Shown here: positions 45,151-57,174 of the stretch, piece by piece
Layout: each line of letters starts with the position of its first letter
How positions within the stretch are numbered: position 1 is the first letter of the stretch
Origin: Brevundimonas viscosa
GTDB lineage: Bacteria; Pseudomonadota; Alphaproteobacteria; Caulobacterales; Caulobacteraceae
Direction of reading: 5' to 3'
Length of the DNA: 64,000 bases
Assembly: GCF_900116065.1 (NCBI RefSeq)
Contig: NZ_FOZV01000004.1
Location: 248,001-312,000 of the forward strand
Notes under the pieces: generated by a model
What the model saw: the letters and a program-made list of their open reading frames with translations, nothing else
Databases searched by the model: none
What the model was told of the DNA's origin: nothing
Translations under genes and position numbers: made by a program

Positions 45151-45765
45151 TCAGCCCCCGGCCGTCGCCCGCGCATCCAGCACATCGAGCACCGCCTGCA
45201 GGGGCAGGCCGCGCGCGCGCAGCAGCACCAGCAGGTGGTAGAGCAGGTCCGCCGCTTCGGAGGCCAGCTCCTCGTCAGGCCCGGCGGCGCCCGCCAGCGC
45301 CGTCTCAACGCCCTCCTCGCCGACCTTCTGGGCCGCCCGCTTGGGGCCCTCGGCCAGAAGGCGCGCGGTCCAGCTGGTCGCCGGGTCGGCCGCGGCGCGG
45401 GCCGCGATGGTCGCCTCCAGTCGCGCCAGCCGGCCGAGCCCCGGCGCATCTTCGGCGCCGAAGCAGCTGGTGCTTCCGAGGTGGCAGGCGGGGCCTCGAG
45501 GACGCACCTTCAGCACAAGGGCGTCCGCGTCGCAGTCGGGCATGATCGAGACCACGTCGAGCCGATTTCCGGAGGTCTCGCCCTTGCGCCAGCGCCCGCC
45601 GCGCGAGCGCGAAAAGAAGGTCGCCTCGCGCGACGCCACGGTCTCCTCCAGCGCCGCCCGGTCCATGTAAGCGAGCGTCAGCACCTGCAGGGTGGCGGCG
45701 TCCTGCACCACGACAGGGACGAGGCCGCCGCCCTTGGCGAAATCCACGCCGTCGATGTCGATCAT
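45151..45765 (-). CDS. hisIE: Bifunctional phosphoribosyl-AMP cyclohydrolase / phosphoribosyl-ATP pyrophosphatase
   Basis: Carries out steps two and three of histidine synthesis. The 204 residues consist of a HisI domain (about 1-110, metal site near PDCDADALVLKV and GPACHLGSTSCFG) and a C-terminal HisE domain (about 115-204, KVGEEGVETALAGA and ELASEAADLLYHLLVLLRA). In Caulobacterales hisI and hisE can be separate, so the fusion is of some note. ATG 45765 overlaps the hisF stop (ATGA). Confidence 0.94.
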   Translation of the reverse strand: MIDIDGVDFAKGGGLVPVVVQDAATLQVLTLAYMDRAALEETVASREATFFSRSRGGRWRKGETSGNRLDVVSIMPDCDADALVLKVRPRGPACHLGSTSCFGAEDAPGLGRLARLEATIAARAAADPATSWTARLLAEGPKRAAQKVGEEGVETALAGAAGPDEELASEAADLLYHLLVLLRARGLPLQAVLDVLDARATAGG

Positions 45766-46529
45766 GGCCGCACCTCGATCCCGGCGACCGCGAGGGCCGC
45801 CTTCAGTTCCGGAATGGCCAGCGCCCCCGAGTGGAACACGCTGGCCGCCAGCGCGCCCGAGACGTCGGCCTGCTCGAACACCTCGCGGAAGTGCCGGGCC
45901 TCGCCGGCGCCGCCCGACGCCACCAGGGGAACGGTCAGCCGCGCCCGCGCCGCCTTCAGCTGCTCCAGGTCGTATCCGCGCCGGACGCCGTCCTCGTCCA
46001 TGCAGTTCAGGACGATCTCGCCGGCGCCCAGGTCCTGCGCCTCGACGATCCAGTCCAGCGTTCGCCGGCCCGCGGCCCCGCTGCGCGACGGATCGCCCGT
46101 GTACTGATGCACCATCCAGTCGTCGCCGCTGCGTCGGGAATCGACGCCGACGACCACGCTCTGGCCGCCGAACCGTCCGGCCAGCTCGCCGACCAGCTCG
46201 GGCCGCTGCAGCGCCGGGGTGTTTACCGACACTTTGTCCGCCCCGCTGTCGAGGCAGCGGCCGGCCTGCTCGACGGTGCGGATGCCGCCGGCGACGCAGA
46301 ACGGTATGTCCAGCAGCCGCGCGATGTCGCGCACCCAGCCGTAGTCGAGCGTTCGCCCCTCGGGGCTGGCGGTGATGTCGTAGAAGACGAGCTCGTCGGC
46401 CCCGGCGTCGCGATAGCGGGCCGCCAGCTCGGCGGCGTCGCCCATGTCGACGTGACCCTCGAAGCGGACGCCCTTGACCACCCGGCCGTCCTTGACGTCG
46501 AGACAGGGAATGATGCGACGCGCTGTCAT
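45762..46529 (-). CDS. hisF: Imidazole glycerol phosphate synthase cyclase subunit
   Basis: Uses ammonia from HisH to make imidazole glycerol phosphate and AICAR. The 255-residue barrel has catalytic Asp in IPCLDVKDGRVVKGV near residue 11 and phosphate sites VAGGIRT and SGGAG. ATG 46529 overlaps the hisA stop; the long frame upstream is hisA out of frame. Confidence 0.96.
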   Translation of the reverse strand: MTARRIIPCLDVKDGRVVKGVRFEGHVDMGDAAELAARYRDAGADELVFYDITASPEGRTLDYGWVRDIARLLDIPFCVAGGIRTVEQAGRCLDSGADKVSVNTPALQRPELVGELAGRFGGQSVVVGVDSRRSGDDWMVHQYTGDPSRSGAAGRRTLDWIVEAQDLGAGEIVLNCMDEDGVRRGYDLEQLKAARARLTVPLVASGGAGEARHFREVFEQADVSGALAASVFHSGALAIPELKAALAVAGIEVRP

Positions 46530-47251
46530 GCGGCCAGGGCCTGCTCGAGCGAGAAGCGCCCCTCGTACAGCGCCCGGCCGACGATGGCCCCGGCGCAGCC
46601 GAGGCGCCGGGCCGCGGCGAGGTCGTCCAGCGTGGCGACGCCGCCGGACGCCTGCACCGCCAGGTCGGGCCGCCGCGCCACGATCTGCGCCAGCAGGTCG
46701 AGGTTGGGGCCGGTCAGGGCGCCGTCGCGGCCGACGTCGGTGACCAGCAGGTGATGTGCGGTCCCCGGCGGGTAGCGATCGAGCGCCGCCCAGAGGTCGA
46801 CCTCGGCGGCCTCCGTCCAGCCCTTGAGGGCGGGGACGTAGCGGTCGCCGTCGGCCTTCACGTCGATCGCGAGGGTGATCCGCTCCGCGCCGAAGTCGGC
46901 CAGCCACCCCGCCACCGTTTCCGGATCGGTCACGGCCAGCGAACCCACCACCACGCGGCTGACCCCGGCCTCCAGCAGCGCCTCCACGTCGCTCCGGGAG
47001 CGCACCCCGCCGCCCGACTGGATGCGGACGTCGACGGCGCGCGTCAATTCGCCGATCAGCGCGTGTTGCCGGGCCTGTCCTGCCTCGGCTCCGTCCAGAT
47101 CGACGATGTGGACCCACGCCGCGCCGGCGGCGGCGAACGCGGCCAGACGGGCGGCCGGCTGCTCGTCATAGTTGGTCACCTGGTCGAACCGCCCATGCAT
47201 CAGCCGCACGCAGACGCCGTACTTCAGGTCGATGGCGGGATAGACGGTCAC
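46526..47251 (-). CDS. hisA: Phosphoribosylformimino-AICAR ribotide isomerase
   Basis: Isomerises ProFAR to PRFAR. The 241-residue TIM barrel is related to HisF, with catalytic Asp in YPAIDLKYGVCVRL near the start and Asp in VTDVGRDGALTGPN. It starts at GTG 47251, overlapping the hisH stop (GTGA); the longer upstream frame is not supported. Confidence 0.96.
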   Translation of the reverse strand: MTVYPAIDLKYGVCVRLMHGRFDQVTNYDEQPAARLAAFAAAGAAWVHIVDLDGAEAGQARQHALIGELTRAVDVRIQSGGGVRSRSDVEALLEAGVSRVVVGSLAVTDPETVAGWLADFGAERITLAIDVKADGDRYVPALKGWTEAAEVDLWAALDRYPPGTAHHLLVTDVGRDGALTGPNLDLLAQIVARRPDLAVQASGGVATLDDLAAARRLGCAGAIVGRALYEGRFSLEQALAA

Positions 47252-47850
47252 GCGGGCAGCTCCAGAAAGTTGCGCAGGATGCGGGCGCCCGTCCCGGACG
47301 AGCGTTCGGGGTGAAACTGGCATCCCCAGCGGTTCGCCATACGCACCGCCGCCGGGACCGGATCGCCGTAGTCGGCGCGGGCGAGCGTCGTGGGCCCGTC
47401 CGGACAGACGAAGCTGTGCACGAAATAGGCCCAGCTCTCATCGCCGAGGCCTTCCAGCAGCGGGTCGTCGCGCATGATCTCCAGCCGCGACCAGCCCATG
47501 TGCGGCACGGTGCGGCCGGGGCCGGCCTGCAGGCGTCGGACCTCTCCGGGGATCAGGCCCAGCAACGGGGCGCCGCCGCCTTCCTCGCTGGTCTCGAACA
47601 GCAGCTGCTGACCGAGGCAGACGCCGAGCAGGGGGCGGGTGAAGGCGCGGATCGACTCGATCAGGCCCAGCTCGCCAAGCCGGGCCATGGCGTAGCCCGC
47701 GGCTCCGACGCCGGGCAGGATCAGCCGTTCGGCGGCGGCGACCGCCTCCGCCGTGTCGACCAGATGCACGCGGGCGCCCAGCCGTTCGAGAGCGAAGCTC
47801 ACCGAGGCGAGATTGCCGGCGCCGTAGGAGAGGACCGCGACCTCGCTCAC
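47248..47850 (-). CDS. hisH: Imidazole glycerol phosphate synthase glutaminase subunit
   Basis: Releases ammonia from glutamine for HisF. This 200-residue class I amidotransferase has nucleophilic Cys in LLGVCLGQQLLFE and the His/Glu pair in FHPERSSGTG. The oxyanion-strand sequence PGVGAAGYAM is typical. It overlaps hisB by four bases. Confidence 0.95.
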   Translation of the reverse strand: MSEVAVLSYGAGNLASVSFALERLGARVHLVDTAEAVAAAERLILPGVGAAGYAMARLGELGLIESIRAFTRPLLGVCLGQQLLFETSEEGGGAPLLGLIPGEVRRLQAGPGRTVPHMGWSRLEIMRDDPLLEGLGDESWAYFVHSFVCPDGPTTLARADYGDPVPAAVRMANRWGCQFHPERSSGTGARILRNFLELPA

Positions 47851-49283
47851 AGCACCCCCTTGGTGCTGGGCACCGCCTCGCCCTCGACGCGGATCGCCTG
47901 GCGCAGGGCGCGGCCGAAGGCCTTGTAGACCGCCTCGGTCTTGTGGTGGTCGTCGTCGCCCGTCACGGAGACGTGGATGGCTGCGCCGAGGTGCTCGGCC
48001 AGCGAGCGGAACACGTGGGCCGTCAGGTCGGTGCGGTAGTCGCCGATGAAGGGCGTGGCGAAGTTTCCGTCGAACACCGGAAATGGCCGTCCAGACAGAT
48101 CGATCGACACCTTCGCTTCGGCCTCGTCCATGGGCAGGACGAAGCCGTAACGAGCGATGCCGCGACGTTCGCCGAGGGCCTGCCTCAGAGCCTGGCCCAG
48201 AGCGATGGCGCAGTCCTCGATGGTGTGGTGGGGATCGGTGTGCAGATCGCCCTCGCAGGCCAGCCGCAGCGAAAAGCCGCCGTGGGCCGCCACCTGCTCC
48301 AGCATGTGGTCGAAGAAGCCGACGCCGGTGGCGATGCGCACCGGCCCGGCCGCGTCGAGGTCGACGGCGCAGACGATCCGCGTCTCCTTCGTGTCGCGCA
48401 CCGCCTCTCCGGTGCGGTTCGGACGGGCCGCGGCAGGGGCGAGGCGCAGCGCCGTCAGCAGGCGATCGTTCACCGCCGTCTTCGCCGCCACCGGCAGGCG
48501 AAGACGGTCGCCGTCCCGGTCAGCCGGCACGCCGAGCCGGGCGAGATCGGCCAGCGTCGCGTCGATGTCCTGAGGATGCACGAGCAGAGTCGGGCCTTCG
48601 CCGGGCTCGACCGGCATCCGTATCGCCAGCGCCGACGCGAGCCGGGCGCGTTCCCGCCTGACCGCGGCGATCCGCTCGGCGGTTTCGATCATCCGGGAAG
48701 GGTCCAACGCCTGCAGCGCCATCCGCGCCGAGGGCGTCGGCAGGGCGTGCGGCTCCATCACCGCCGCCAGCCGCGCCAGCGCCTCCGGCCAGCCCAGCGC
48801 CGCGCCCACTCGGGCGCCCGCCAGACCGTACGCCAGCGACAGGCTGCGCAGCACGACCAGGTTGGGCTGGTCGGCGATCACCGTGGCCGCCGAGGCAGCG
48901 TCTTCGAACTCGATGGGGCCCTCGTCGACGACGAGCAGGGCGGGGGCGACGCGGGCGGCCGTACCCGCCAACGTCTCCGGCGAAGCCCCGCCGCGCACGA
49001 CCACGGCGGCGACGCCGGCGCCCGCCGGAGGGCTGGGGTAGAGGTCGGTCAGGGCGAGATAGGGCTGCGCCTCCGGCGCCTCGACCGCCAGACCGGCGCG
49101 CGCCGCCATGCGCCAGACCAGCTCGAGCCCGTGGGTCACGCCGCGCACCGGCAGCACGCTGTCGGCCGGCACGCCGTAGACCTCGGCCATGCGCGCCGAC
49201 AGGGCCGCCGGCCCCGCCGGGTAGCGTTCCAGACCGTCGCCGGCGGCGACGAGCGGCGGGAAGGGCGCGGGCAGGGGGCTCAT
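47847..49283 (-). CDS. hisB: HisC-like pseudo-aminotransferase fused to imidazoleglycerol-phosphate dehydratase (HisB)
   Basis: The 478 residues form two parts. Residues about 292-478 are a complete HisB dehydratase with the metal-binding motifs HHTIED and DHHKTEA and the end VPSTKGVL. Residues 1-285 align by motifs with histidinol-phosphate aminotransferase: YP near 21, VVDEGPIEFED near 120, VVLRSLSLAYGLAGARVG at 143-160 and VNDRLLTAL near 275. The PLP lysine is Leu150 (codon CTG), the DEAY tyrosine is Pro123 and NPNNPTG is absent; Arg158 remains. The fusion sits where hisC normally sits, between hisD and hisH. ATG 49283 overlaps the hisD stop. Dehydratase function is confident; the first domain is probably non-catalytic. 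Confidence 0.9.
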   Translation of the reverse strand: MSPLPAPFPPLVAAGDGLERYPAGPAALSARMAEVYGVPADSVLPVRGVTHGLELVWRMAARAGLAVEAPEAQPYLALTDLYPSPPAGAGVAAVVVRGGASPETLAGTAARVAPALLVVDEGPIEFEDAASAATVIADQPNLVVLRSLSLAYGLAGARVGAALGWPEALARLAAVMEPHALPTPSARMALQALDPSRMIETAERIAAVRRERARLASALAIRMPVEPGEGPTLLVHPQDIDATLADLARLGVPADRDGDRLRLPVAAKTAVNDRLLTALRLAPAAARPNRTGEAVRDTKETRIVCAVDLDAAGPVRIATGVGFFDHMLEQVAAHGGFSLRLACEGDLHTDPHHTIEDCAIALGQALRQALGERRGIARYGFVLPMDEAEAKVSIDLSGRPFPVFDGNFATPFIGDYRTDLTAHVFRSLAEHLGAAIHVSVTGDDDHHKTEAVYKAFGRALRQAIRVEGEAVPSTKGVL

Positions 49284-50587
49284 GATCCGGTCCTCAGATC
49301 GGCGGCGCGGGCGTGGGCCTCCAGCCCCTCCATGCGGGCGAGGCGCGCCGCCGCCGGAGCCAGCTGCGCCGCCCCCGCCTCGGTGACGGACTGGACCGAC
49401 ATCCAGGTCATGAAGCTGGCGGTGCAAATGCCGCCCAGGGTCCGGGCGGCCCCGTCGGTCGGCAGCACGTGGCTCGGTCCCGCGGCATAGTCGCCCAGCG
49501 TCTCGGCGGCCCAGCGGCCGACGAACACGGCTCCAGCCGCCTCGATGCCGGGCAGCAGCGCCTCGGCGTCGACGGTCTGGATCGACAGGTGCTCGGGCCC
49601 GTAGGCGTTGGCCGCCTCGCGGGCCCCGGCGAGATCGCGTACGCGTATGACGCGGCCCTGCGCCAGCGAGGCGCGGGCGACATCGGCGCGGGGCAGGGTC
49701 TCCAGCTGGCGCTCGACCTCGTCGAGCGTCGCCTCGATCAGGCCGCGACTGTCGGAGACCAGCAGCACCTGGGCGTCGGCGTCGTGCTCGGCTTGGCTGA
49801 GCAGGTCGGCGGCGACGATCTCCGGATCGGCGTCGCGATCGGCGATCACCATCAGCTCCGAGGGACCGGCGGGCATGTCGACGGCCGGCCCCCCTGACAG
49901 GGCGGTCGCCTGCTTCTTGGCTTCGGCCACCCAGGCGTTGCCCGGGCCGAACAGCTTGTCGACGGGCTCGATCTCGCCGTCATCCAAGACGGCGCCGAAG
50001 GTCAGGGCGGCGATAGCCTGGGCGCCGCCGACCAGCCACAGGGCCTCCAGCCCGGCCTCGGCCGCGGCGGCGATCATCGCCGGATGCGGTTCGCCGTCGC
50101 GCGGGGGCGGGGTCACGGCGACGCGGCGCCTCACCCCGGCCACCGCCGCGGGAATGGCCTGCATGAGGAGCGAGGAGAACAGGGGGGCTGTGCCGCCGGG
50201 CACGTAGAGGCCGGCCGAACGGATCGGCCGCCAGGCGAGGCGGGAGCGCACCCCGGGCGTGGTCTCGATCCACGGCGAGTCCCCGGGGCGGGTCGCCTCG
50301 TGGAAGACGCGCACGTTCTCGGCGGCGATCCGCAGGGCCCGGGTGGCGGAGGGCGGCAGGGCGGCGCGGGCGGCCGCCTCGACCTCCGGGGTGATGGCGA
50401 TGCGGCGGGGCGGCGCGCCGTCGAGTTTCAGGCTCCATTCGGTGACGGCGGTTCCGCCGCGGGCCTGCACGTCCTCAAGGATGGCCCGCACCCCGTCGAC
50501 CACGGCCGGGTCGCCCCGACGGGCGGGGCGGGCGAGGGCGGCTTCGCGCCCGGTTGCGTCCAGCGAGCTCCAGTCGATCAGGCGCAT
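49280..50587 (-). CDS. hisD: Histidinol dehydrogenase
   Basis: Catalyses the last two oxidations to L-histidine. The 435-residue zinc enzyme has GGAQAIAALTFG, PAGPSELMVIAD, the zinc ligands in SQAEHDADAQVLL and GDYAAGPSHVLPT, and the catalytic Glu-His in YGPEHLSIQ. ATG 50587 shares a base with the hisG stop; the longer upstream frame is hisG antisense-phase noise. Confidence 0.96.
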   Translation of the reverse strand: MRLIDWSSLDATGREAALARPARRGDPAVVDGVRAILEDVQARGGTAVTEWSLKLDGAPPRRIAITPEVEAAARAALPPSATRALRIAAENVRVFHEATRPGDSPWIETTPGVRSRLAWRPIRSAGLYVPGGTAPLFSSLLMQAIPAAVAGVRRRVAVTPPPRDGEPHPAMIAAAAEAGLEALWLVGGAQAIAALTFGAVLDDGEIEPVDKLFGPGNAWVAEAKKQATALSGGPAVDMPAGPSELMVIADRDADPEIVAADLLSQAEHDADAQVLLVSDSRGLIEATLDEVERQLETLPRADVARASLAQGRVIRVRDLAGAREAANAYGPEHLSIQTVDAEALLPGIEAAGAVFVGRWAAETLGDYAAGPSHVLPTDGAARTLGGICTASFMTWMSVQSVTEAGAAQLAPAAARLARMEGLEAHARAADLRTGS

Positions 50588-51477: not shown

Positions 51478-51789
51478 TCAGGCTTTCAGGCGATCCAGCA
51501 CCAGGCGGTAGCCCTGGTGCGGCATCTCTTTGAGGAAGCGGGCGACGCGGACGACGGTGGTCGGACTGGCGTGCGCCTCGGCGGCGATCTCGCGGTAGGA
51601 GCGGCCGCCCGCATGAAGCAGCCGCGCCACCTGCCACCGTTCGGTGAAGGCCCGCAGCTCCGCCGGGGTGCAGAGATCGGTCAGGAAGGCGTCAACTTCC
51701 TCACGGGACCTGAGTGCAAGAATCGCATCGTAAAGGGCGACCCGGTTGCGGGCGGTCGCGTCGGCTCCGGGGGGATAGGGTGCGGACAT
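51478..51789 (-). CDS. TrpR-superfamily (YerC/YecD, HisR-like) regulator heading the his operon
   Basis: This 103-residue all-helical protein has the TrpR-fold DNA-binding region RSYREIAAEAHASPTTVVRV near residues 67-86, preceded by CTPAELRAFTERWQVARLL. YerC/YecD proteins have been proposed from comparative genomics to regulate histidine genes in Gram-positive bacteria. Here the gene is first in the his operon, 9 nt before hisG, which makes a histidine-responsive role likely. ATG 51789 starts close to a perfect inverted repeat. A longer upstream frame reaches 51882 but would destroy that promoter. Confidence 0.85.
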   Translation of the reverse strand: MSAPYPPGADATARNRVALYDAILALRSREEVDAFLTDLCTPAELRAFTERWQVARLLHAGGRSYREIAAEAHASPTTVVRVARFLKEMPHQGYRLVLDRLKA

Positions 51790-51793
51790 AGCT

Positions 51794-51819
51794 GTTCCAA
51801 TATGCTGTAACGTTGGAAC
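51794..51819 (-). promoter_or_regulatory. Candidate his operator/promoter
   Basis: GTTCCAA (51794-51800) and TTGGAAC (51813-51819) form a perfect 7-bp inverted repeat with a 12-nt spacer. On the minus strand TTGCAC (51825-51820) followed after 17 nt by TATTGG (51802-51797) could be -35 and -10 elements, so the repeat overlaps the promoter. The predicted transcript would start only a few bases before ATG 51789, i.e. a nearly leaderless mRNA. Confidence 0.6.
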
Positions 51820-51968
51820 GTGCAAGCCCGGAAGAGGTGGGCTCGGCGGGCTCGCGACGCCGATCGTTGTTCTCCGTCGCATGCCCCGTGCGGCGCCGTT
51901 CGCTTGACGGTTGTGGTTTTCGGCGCGAGAGATTCCCGATCCGGCGCTTGTGCCGGGGGGGAACCATC

Positions 51969-57084: not shown

Positions 57085-57174
57085 TGGCGGACAGGGTGGG
57101 ATTCGAACCCACGGTGGGCTTGCACCCACGGCGGTTTTCAAGACCGCTGCCTTAAACCACTCGGCCACCTGTCC
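57085..57174 (-). tRNA. tRNA-Ser(UGA)
   Basis: A 90-nt cloverleaf with acceptor pairing GGACAGG/CCTGTCC, discriminator G and encoded CCA. The D-arm is GGCCGAGTGGTTTAAGGC, the anticodon loop is CTTGAAA with anticodon TGA, there is a long class II variable arm (CCGTGGGTGCAAGCCCACCG) and the T-arm has GTTCGAATC. The long variable arm and anticodon define tRNA-Ser reading UCA-type codons. Confidence 0.95.

What the first reader, a model, noticed from the sequence alone, without database searches (positions are those of the whole stretch)
47847..49283. HisC-like pseudo-aminotransferase domain fused to HisB
The only gene in the hisC slot of this his operon encodes a shortened HisC-like domain (residues 1-285) joined to a complete HisB (292-478). 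Seen directly: the segment SLSLAYGLAGARVG has Leu150 where HisC enzymes carry the PLP lysine (TLSKAFGLAG); DEGPIEF replaces DEAYxxF; no NPNNPTG loop exists between them; Arg158 of the phosphate site remains. AAG to CTG needs two changes, so this is not a sequencing slip. Inference: the domain is catalytically dead and may serve as a scaffold, a histidinol-phosphate sensor or an allosteric controller for HisB, and a true HisC is encoded elsewhere. I know HisB fusions with a phosphatase (E. coli) but not this one.
Basis: partly seen in the sequence, partly recalled or inferred. Interest (0 to 1): 0.85.

Follow-up and report, generated by a model that had tools for sequence, protein, structure and literature searches.

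The report
Dead transaminase domain fused to HisB
In Brevundimonas-type bacteria the histidine-making enzyme HisB carries at its front a HisC transaminase domain that has lost its catalytic lysine and is predicted to be inactive, while relatives keep the lysine-bearing two-enzyme form; the dead domain is still constrained by selection and likely serves as a structural or regulatory part.

Summary
The gene (minus strand, 49283-47847, 478 aa, in hisG-D-[C-B]-H-A-F-[IE]) encodes a domain predicted to have the HisC fold, joined to a complete HisB. Leu150 aligns with Lys214 of E. coli HisC, DEAY is DEGP, and NPNNPTG is absent. None of the 120 listed homologues (of 796 hits) has the lysine. A normal HisC lies elsewhere in the genome.

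The tools added the origin. Lysine-bearing HisC-HisB fusions (about 550 aa) occur in Sphingomonadales, SAR116, Parvularcula and Peiella, the last placed in the window's genus by the tool. On the HisB tree the HisC half was lost about 7 times if losses are irreversible (range 5-9 in 200 bootstraps), in stages: lysine lost, PLP domain eroded, domain gone (HisD-HisB fusions). Of 40 genomes without an intact half, 39 have a separate HisC over the curated cut-off (one is 1 bit under); of 19 with an intact half, 13 have none. Controlled for kinship, that contrast is not significant.

The dead domain is under purifying selection, strongest at the old lysine loop. I infer a retained structural part of HisB; a ligand-sensing controller is the main rival. 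My paper searches found no HisC-HisB or HisD-HisB fusion.

The parts
47847..49283 (-). pseudo-HisC/HisB fusion gene, 478 aa, ATG...TGA
48429..49283 (-). residues 1-285: HisC-like domain without Lys, NPNNPTG loop and N-terminal arm
48834..48836 (-). codon 150, CTG (Leu) at the Schiff-base lysine position
48924..48926 (-). codon 120 (Asp), equivalent of E. coli HisC Asp184, retained
48810..48812 (-). codon 158 (Arg), equivalent of E. coli HisC Arg222, retained
48804..48863 (-). residues 141-160, old lysine loop: most conserved 20-residue window of the domain
47850..48410 (-). residues 292-478: complete HisB (imidazoleglycerol-phosphate dehydratase)
49280..50587 (-). hisD (start taken at the ATG that overlaps the hisG stop)
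   Evidence: TIGR00069 448.8 bits
50587..51468 (-). hisG
   Evidence: TIGR00070 179 bits
47248..47850 (-). hisH
46526..47251 (-). hisA (start inferred at a GTG overlapping the hisH stop)
45762..46520 (-). hisF
   Evidence: TIGR00735 305.7 bits
45151..45765 (-). hisIE (fused)
   Evidence: NF002747 237 bits
51478..51882 (-). YerC/TrpR-related regulator gene just upstream of hisG (listed as neighbour)

Best explanation
This is a HisC-HisB fusion protein whose HisC half has lost the catalytic lysine and the NPNNPTG loop, is predicted to be catalytically dead, and is likely kept as a folded structural part of the HisB dehydratase. Proposed history (inferred from the trees): a compact gammaproteobacterial-type operon hisGDC[NB]HAF[IE] lost the HisN phosphatase stretch, which joined HisC to HisB and gave a bifunctional enzyme for two consecutive steps. 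Genomes that also had a separate HisC no longer needed the HisC half, and it was inactivated several times. Shown: lysine-bearing fusions in relatives, the missing catalytic residues here, a separate HisC over the cut-off in this genome, and purifying selection on the dead domain. Inferred: that the separate HisC now does the step, and that the dead domain helps HisB fold, assemble or position itself.
Against: No activity or structure has been measured. With kinship controlled only 3-4 independent pairs exist, and the link between inactive half and separate HisC is not significant. dN/dS below 1 could reflect no more than the need of an N-terminal domain not to misfold. It is above that of the separate HisC in 9 of 10 same-genome pairs, so constraint is relaxed. 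Whole removal of the domain in HisD-HisB lineages shows that HisB can do without it. The retained Asp, Ser and Arg of the PLP site fit a ligand site better than a mere scaffold. The origin from HisNB-type HisB rests on SH-aLRT values of 81-91, not on starred branches.
Confidence: 0.6

Rival explanations
1. The dead domain is a ligand-binding controller: it keeps part of the old PLP/substrate site, would bind a phosphorylated intermediate (or PLP without a covalent bond), and would adjust HisB activity.
For: In 44 copies from the genus, equivalents of Asp184, Ser213 and Arg222 are 100% kept, Arg335 98% and Tyr55 95% (the names Arg335 and Tyr55 are recalled). Residues 141-160 have the lowest dN/dS of the domain, 0.07, and the highest conservation of 266 windows, 0.96 against a domain mean of 0.78. 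There are 51 columns invariant in the pseudo-domain but not matching the intact enzyme.
Against: Other lysine-less lineages replace the Arg, mostly by Pro. Asn157, Tyr187, Lys214 and Asp85 equivalents are lost. No ligand was tested; conserved glycine-rich loops can be structural.
Confidence: 0.22
2. The domain is a passive relic that is decaying slowly; it stays only because a deletion must keep the HisB frame and the protein soluble.
For: A graded series exists: lysine-less domains, domains of about 200 aa with only the C-terminal HisC part recognisable (hhalign 87.7%, E 3.4e-6, HisD control 0.2%), and complete removal with HisD joined to HisB. dN/dS rises along it: 0.13-0.33 in lysine-less, 0.29-0.66 in eroded pairs.
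Against: dN/dS is well below 1 in every pair tested, length is nearly constant in the genus (24 gapped columns of 297), and the lysine loop is as conserved as HisB itself.
Confidence: 0.15
3. The dead domain pairs with the separate HisC and tethers it to HisB, as the lysine-less LCB1 subunit pairs with LCB2 in serine palmitoyltransferase.
For: HisC is a dimer with shared active sites (recalled); the equivalent of Tyr55, which reaches into the partner's site (recalled), is kept in 95%. LCB1 lacks the PLP lysine and forms a heterodimer with LCB2 (passages of PMC3794620). HisB and HisC act consecutively.
Against: The N-terminal arm is deleted, and the separate HisC is of another subfamily (26% over 132 aa). 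No interaction was tested.
Confidence: 0.06

Closest known systems
HisC, histidinol-phosphate aminotransferase (TIGR01141; E. coli 1fg3/1gex, Klebsiella 7szp)
   Same: Predicted fold of residues 15-283; Asp, Ser and Arg of the PLP site; sequence match over residues 109-246.
   Different: No Schiff-base lysine, no NPNNPTG loop, no Tyr of DEAY, N-terminal arm deleted; far below the family cut-off.
HisNB, bifunctional phosphatase/dehydratase of E. coli (NF003937)
   Same: HisB at the C-terminus of a two-domain protein in a hisGDC[NB]HAF[IE]-type operon; HisNB is the best HisB model by bits for the dehydratase part (268.7).
   Different: The N-terminal part is a HisC-type domain, not a phosphatase; the score is below the HisNB cut-off of 443.
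Lysine-bearing HisC-HisB fusions (e.g. Peiella sedimenti, Parvularcula sp. IMCC14364, Sphingomonas); JGI records name some 'histidinol-phosphate aminotransferase/imidazoleglycerol-phosphate dehydratase'
   Same: Same domain order and junction, same clade of HisB.
   Different: They keep Lys, NPNNPTG and DEAY and pass the HisC cut-off.
LCB1 subunit of serine palmitoyltransferase
   Same: A PLP-fold protein without the lysine, kept beside a working relative (PMC3794620, passages).
   Different: A separate subunit of a heterodimer; not fused to the next enzyme of its pathway.

Membership tests
HisC (TIGR01141) | score over the curated cut-off of 276.55 bits | tested here: not met
   88.9 bits
HisC (TIGR01141) | Schiff-base lysine | tested here: not met
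   Leu150; 0 of 120 homologues have Lys
HisC (TIGR01141) | NPNNPTG loop and DEAY tyrosine | tested here: not met
   loop largely deleted, Tyr replaced by Pro123
HisC (TIGR01141) | fold-type I aminotransferase fold | tested here: met
HisC (TIGR01141) | PLP binding and transaminase activity | not testable with these tools
   needs purified protein
HisB / IGPD (PF00475) | domain over the gathering score; conserved His/Glu/Asp motifs | tested here: met
   196.4 bits against 27; DHM, HHxxED and HHKTE invariant in 80 rows except Lys448/Thr449, which are 90% or more
HisNB (NF003937) | N-terminal phosphatase domain / score over 443 bits | tested here: not met
   268.7 bits, residues 286-478 only
CobD threonine-phosphate decarboxylase (TIGR01140) | score over the cut-off of 290.55 bits | tested here: not met
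   89.0 bits

The most novel reading that the evidence does not exclude
A dead transaminase has been turned into an allosteric sensor domain of the preceding enzyme of the pathway: it keeps a phosphate cup at the old PLP site, reads the level of imidazole-acetol phosphate or histidinol phosphate, and tunes the HisB oligomer, with at least five parallel losses of catalysis in sister lineages.
Probability: 0.2. Interest if true: 0.8.

Novelty: new variant of a known kind. Interest (0 to 1): 0.6.

Why it matters
It shows how a bifunctional enzyme can turn into an enzyme with a non-catalytic partner domain: intact, freshly inactivated, eroded and domain-free versions live side by side in one bacterial order, so the steps can be tested with natural sequences. 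It adds HisC-HisB and HisD-HisB to the known fusions of a classic pathway; the 2007 survey lists five fusions, and hisC is not among the eight fused genes it names (PMC1963479, passages). It is also a caution for annotation: public names for these proteins include 'histidinol-phosphate aminotransferase' and 'aminotransferase class I/II-fold PLP-dependent enzyme', although none of the 120 listed has the lysine.

Tried and rejected
Rejected: a sequencing or assembly slip (44 genomes of the genus and 120 homologues agree). Rejected: a recent copy of the genome's own HisC (26% identity against 35% to Peiella's fused HisC). Rejected: membership in CobD. Not upheld: my guess that the gene upstream of the separate HisC is a chorismate mutase; Pfam gives no family and NCBIfam only a 'hypothetical protein' model below its cut-off, so the other job of the separate HisC stays open. 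Not significant: the kinship-controlled test of separate HisC against loss. Uninformative: promoter and terminator scan (0 promoters; 3 terminators against 1.6 expected). Weak: dN/dS of intact pairs, where dS was saturated in 3 of 4. G171 has HisD at a contig end and no HisB match; I treat it as an assembly gap, not as loss. The order-level loci and the 68 genomes were picked by me to span the match types, not drawn at random; loci L085, L113, L117, L118, L119 and L131 have no genome. No label was checked by a phosphatase search; 'HisNB-like' there means 130 or more residues before HisB in the open frame. For 10 fused loci that marked 'dead?' because of a narrow pattern, one search showed the lysine in 9 and its absence in one (L162). 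Literature: all 10 searches were used; of the papers I saw listings, and passages of five, none in full.

Full report
THE GENE. The frame runs on the minus strand from ATG 49283 to TGA 47847 and gives 478 aa. It overlaps hisD upstream and hisH downstream by an ATGA and a GTGA. Neighbours are hisG, hisD, hisH, hisA, hisF and a fused hisIE, all over their NCBIfam cut-offs in at least one model, with a YerC/TrpR-related gene before hisG. The order is that of E. coli, hisGDC[NB]HAF[IE] (passages of PMC8305728), except that one gene stands for hisC and hisB.

DISTRIBUTION. Of 37 genomes of the window's genus (the window's included), 32 hold the fusion at full length; three hold pieces (G007, G027, G030), one only a weak match (G023), one none (G015). 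By the names of homologues the genus is Brevundimonas (inference). In 199 genomes of the family and 249 of the order other types appeared. I fetched 60 regions and read the frames. Lysine-bearing fusions: 19 rows, Lys in 19, the Asn of NPTG in 18 (L090 has Ser). Lysine-less, HisC-like: 63 rows (44 of the genus, 19 others), Lys in 0, Asp of DEAY in 63. Replacements differ by lineage: Leu or Met in the genus; Tyr or Phe in genus g23; Tyr, Leu, Gln, Ile, Ala, Met or a gap elsewhere; Ser in L087. Eroded: 13 rows with about 200-240 residues before HisB. For 12 of them together hhalign matched only the C-terminal HisC part (87.7%, E 3.4e-6; control against HisD 0.2%). HisD-HisB single frames: 8 rows (L081-L086, L107, L108); two were read in full.

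OUTSIDE THE ORDER. Peiella sedimenti (L132) has the contig length and sequence of G133, which the tool places in the window's genus; NCBI lists Peiella as a genus of its own in Caulobacteraceae. A class-level search found 8 more full-length fusions among 337 genomes; their lysine was not examined.

ORIGIN AND LOSSES. On a HisB tree of 82 rows all 72 fused-type rows form one clade against 10 unfused ones, 100/100. Counting irreversible loss, the best tree needs 7; 200 bootstrap trees need 5-9 (5th-95th percentile 6-7). If regain cost the same as loss, 4 changes would do. HisD-HisB needs at least two origins on starred branches. In a quick tree of 100 rows the fused HisBs lie among HisB parts with a long N-terminal stretch (HisNB-like), mostly gammaproteobacterial, with SH-aLRT 81-91. 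This, the gene order and the best HisB model (NF003937) suggest that loss of the HisN stretch made the fusion; this is inference.

THE SEPARATE HISC. The own genome has one over the cut-off, 301.3 bits, and a HisN over its cut-off, 290.8 bits. Among 68 chosen genomes, 40 lack an intact HisC half and are counted: 39 have a separate HisC over the cut-off, and G296 has one at 275.6 against 276.55. Of 19 with an intact half, 6 have a separate one over the cut-off and 13 none. Fisher p = 6.7e-9, but with kinship controlled only 3-4 independent pairs remain and the sign test is not significant. Four genomes of the genus (G015, G125, G207, G239) lack HisB and HisD, are predicted histidine auxotrophs, and keep a separate HisC over the cut-off. 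So that HisC likely has another job, and redundancy came for free. Genomes with both forms (G133, G039, G047, G249, G398, G383) look like the stage before loss.

SELECTION. Within the genus the median dN/dS is 0.34 in the dead domain and 0.155 in HisB (920 usable of 946 pairs). In 10 same-genome pairs the separate HisC has 0.08-0.35, the dead domain 0.24-0.51 and HisB 0.02-0.18; in 9 of 10 the dead domain exceeds the separate HisC. In 9 lysine-less pairs the values are 0.13-0.33, upper bounds at most 0.44; in 5 eroded pairs 0.29-0.66, upper bounds at most 0.94 (pairs picked by me, simple Nei-Gojobori counts). Residues 141-160, the old lysine loop, have the lowest windowed value (0.07) and the highest conservation of 266 windows (0.96). 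Of 56 columns invariant in 69 lysine-bearing rows, the genus keeps 23, replaces 29 and deletes 4; 51 columns are newly invariant.

MECHANISM. I commit to a structural part of HisB (fold and assembly). HisB is a 24-mer in solved relatives (24 chains in 7oj5 and 6ezm), so each fused domain would sit on its shell. The site remnants (Asp120, Ser149, Arg158, Arg262) keep a ligand-sensing role open. Which of the two holds is not decided by sequence.

NOVELTY. Passages of a 2007 survey name hisA, B, D, E, F, H, I and N as fused genes and five fusions, none with hisC (PMC1963479); a 2023 review repeats seven genes and has no word beginning with hisC (PMC10138114); the passages seen of PMC8305728 (12 of 20) and PMC6029752 (9 of 9) mention no such fusion. 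Ten full-text searches of open papers found no HisC-HisB fusion; HisD-HisB was not searched as its own term except 'hisDB' inside PMC1963479 (0 hits). Subscription papers are not covered. The fusion is visible in database names, for instance 'histidinol-phosphate aminotransferase/imidazoleglycerol-phosphate dehydratase/...'.

Noticed in passing
L081-L086 and L107-L108 (e.g. L081:3077-4975 -): HisD and HisB in one reading frame, in two families of the order; the HisC-derived stretch between them is gone.
   Followed up: partly
genomes G015, G125, G207, G239: Genomes of the window's genus, 100% complete by the tool's figures, without HisB and HisD: predicted histidine auxotrophs that keep HisC and HisN-like genes.
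   Followed up: partly
window 51478-51882 (-): YerC/TrpR-related regulator gene 10 bases before hisG; a candidate regulator of the his operon.
   Followed up: no
L090 (G249): A HisC-HisB fusion that keeps the lysine but has Ser for the Asn of NPNNPTG, beside a separate HisC: possibly caught early in decay.
   Followed up: no
genomes G062, G066, G074, G082: Family members of three other genera with no HisB match at 1e-20; not examined further.
   Followed up: no
window 57088-57174 (-): tRNA gene (Rfam RF00005, 62.7 bits), the only Rfam match of the window.
   Followed up: no
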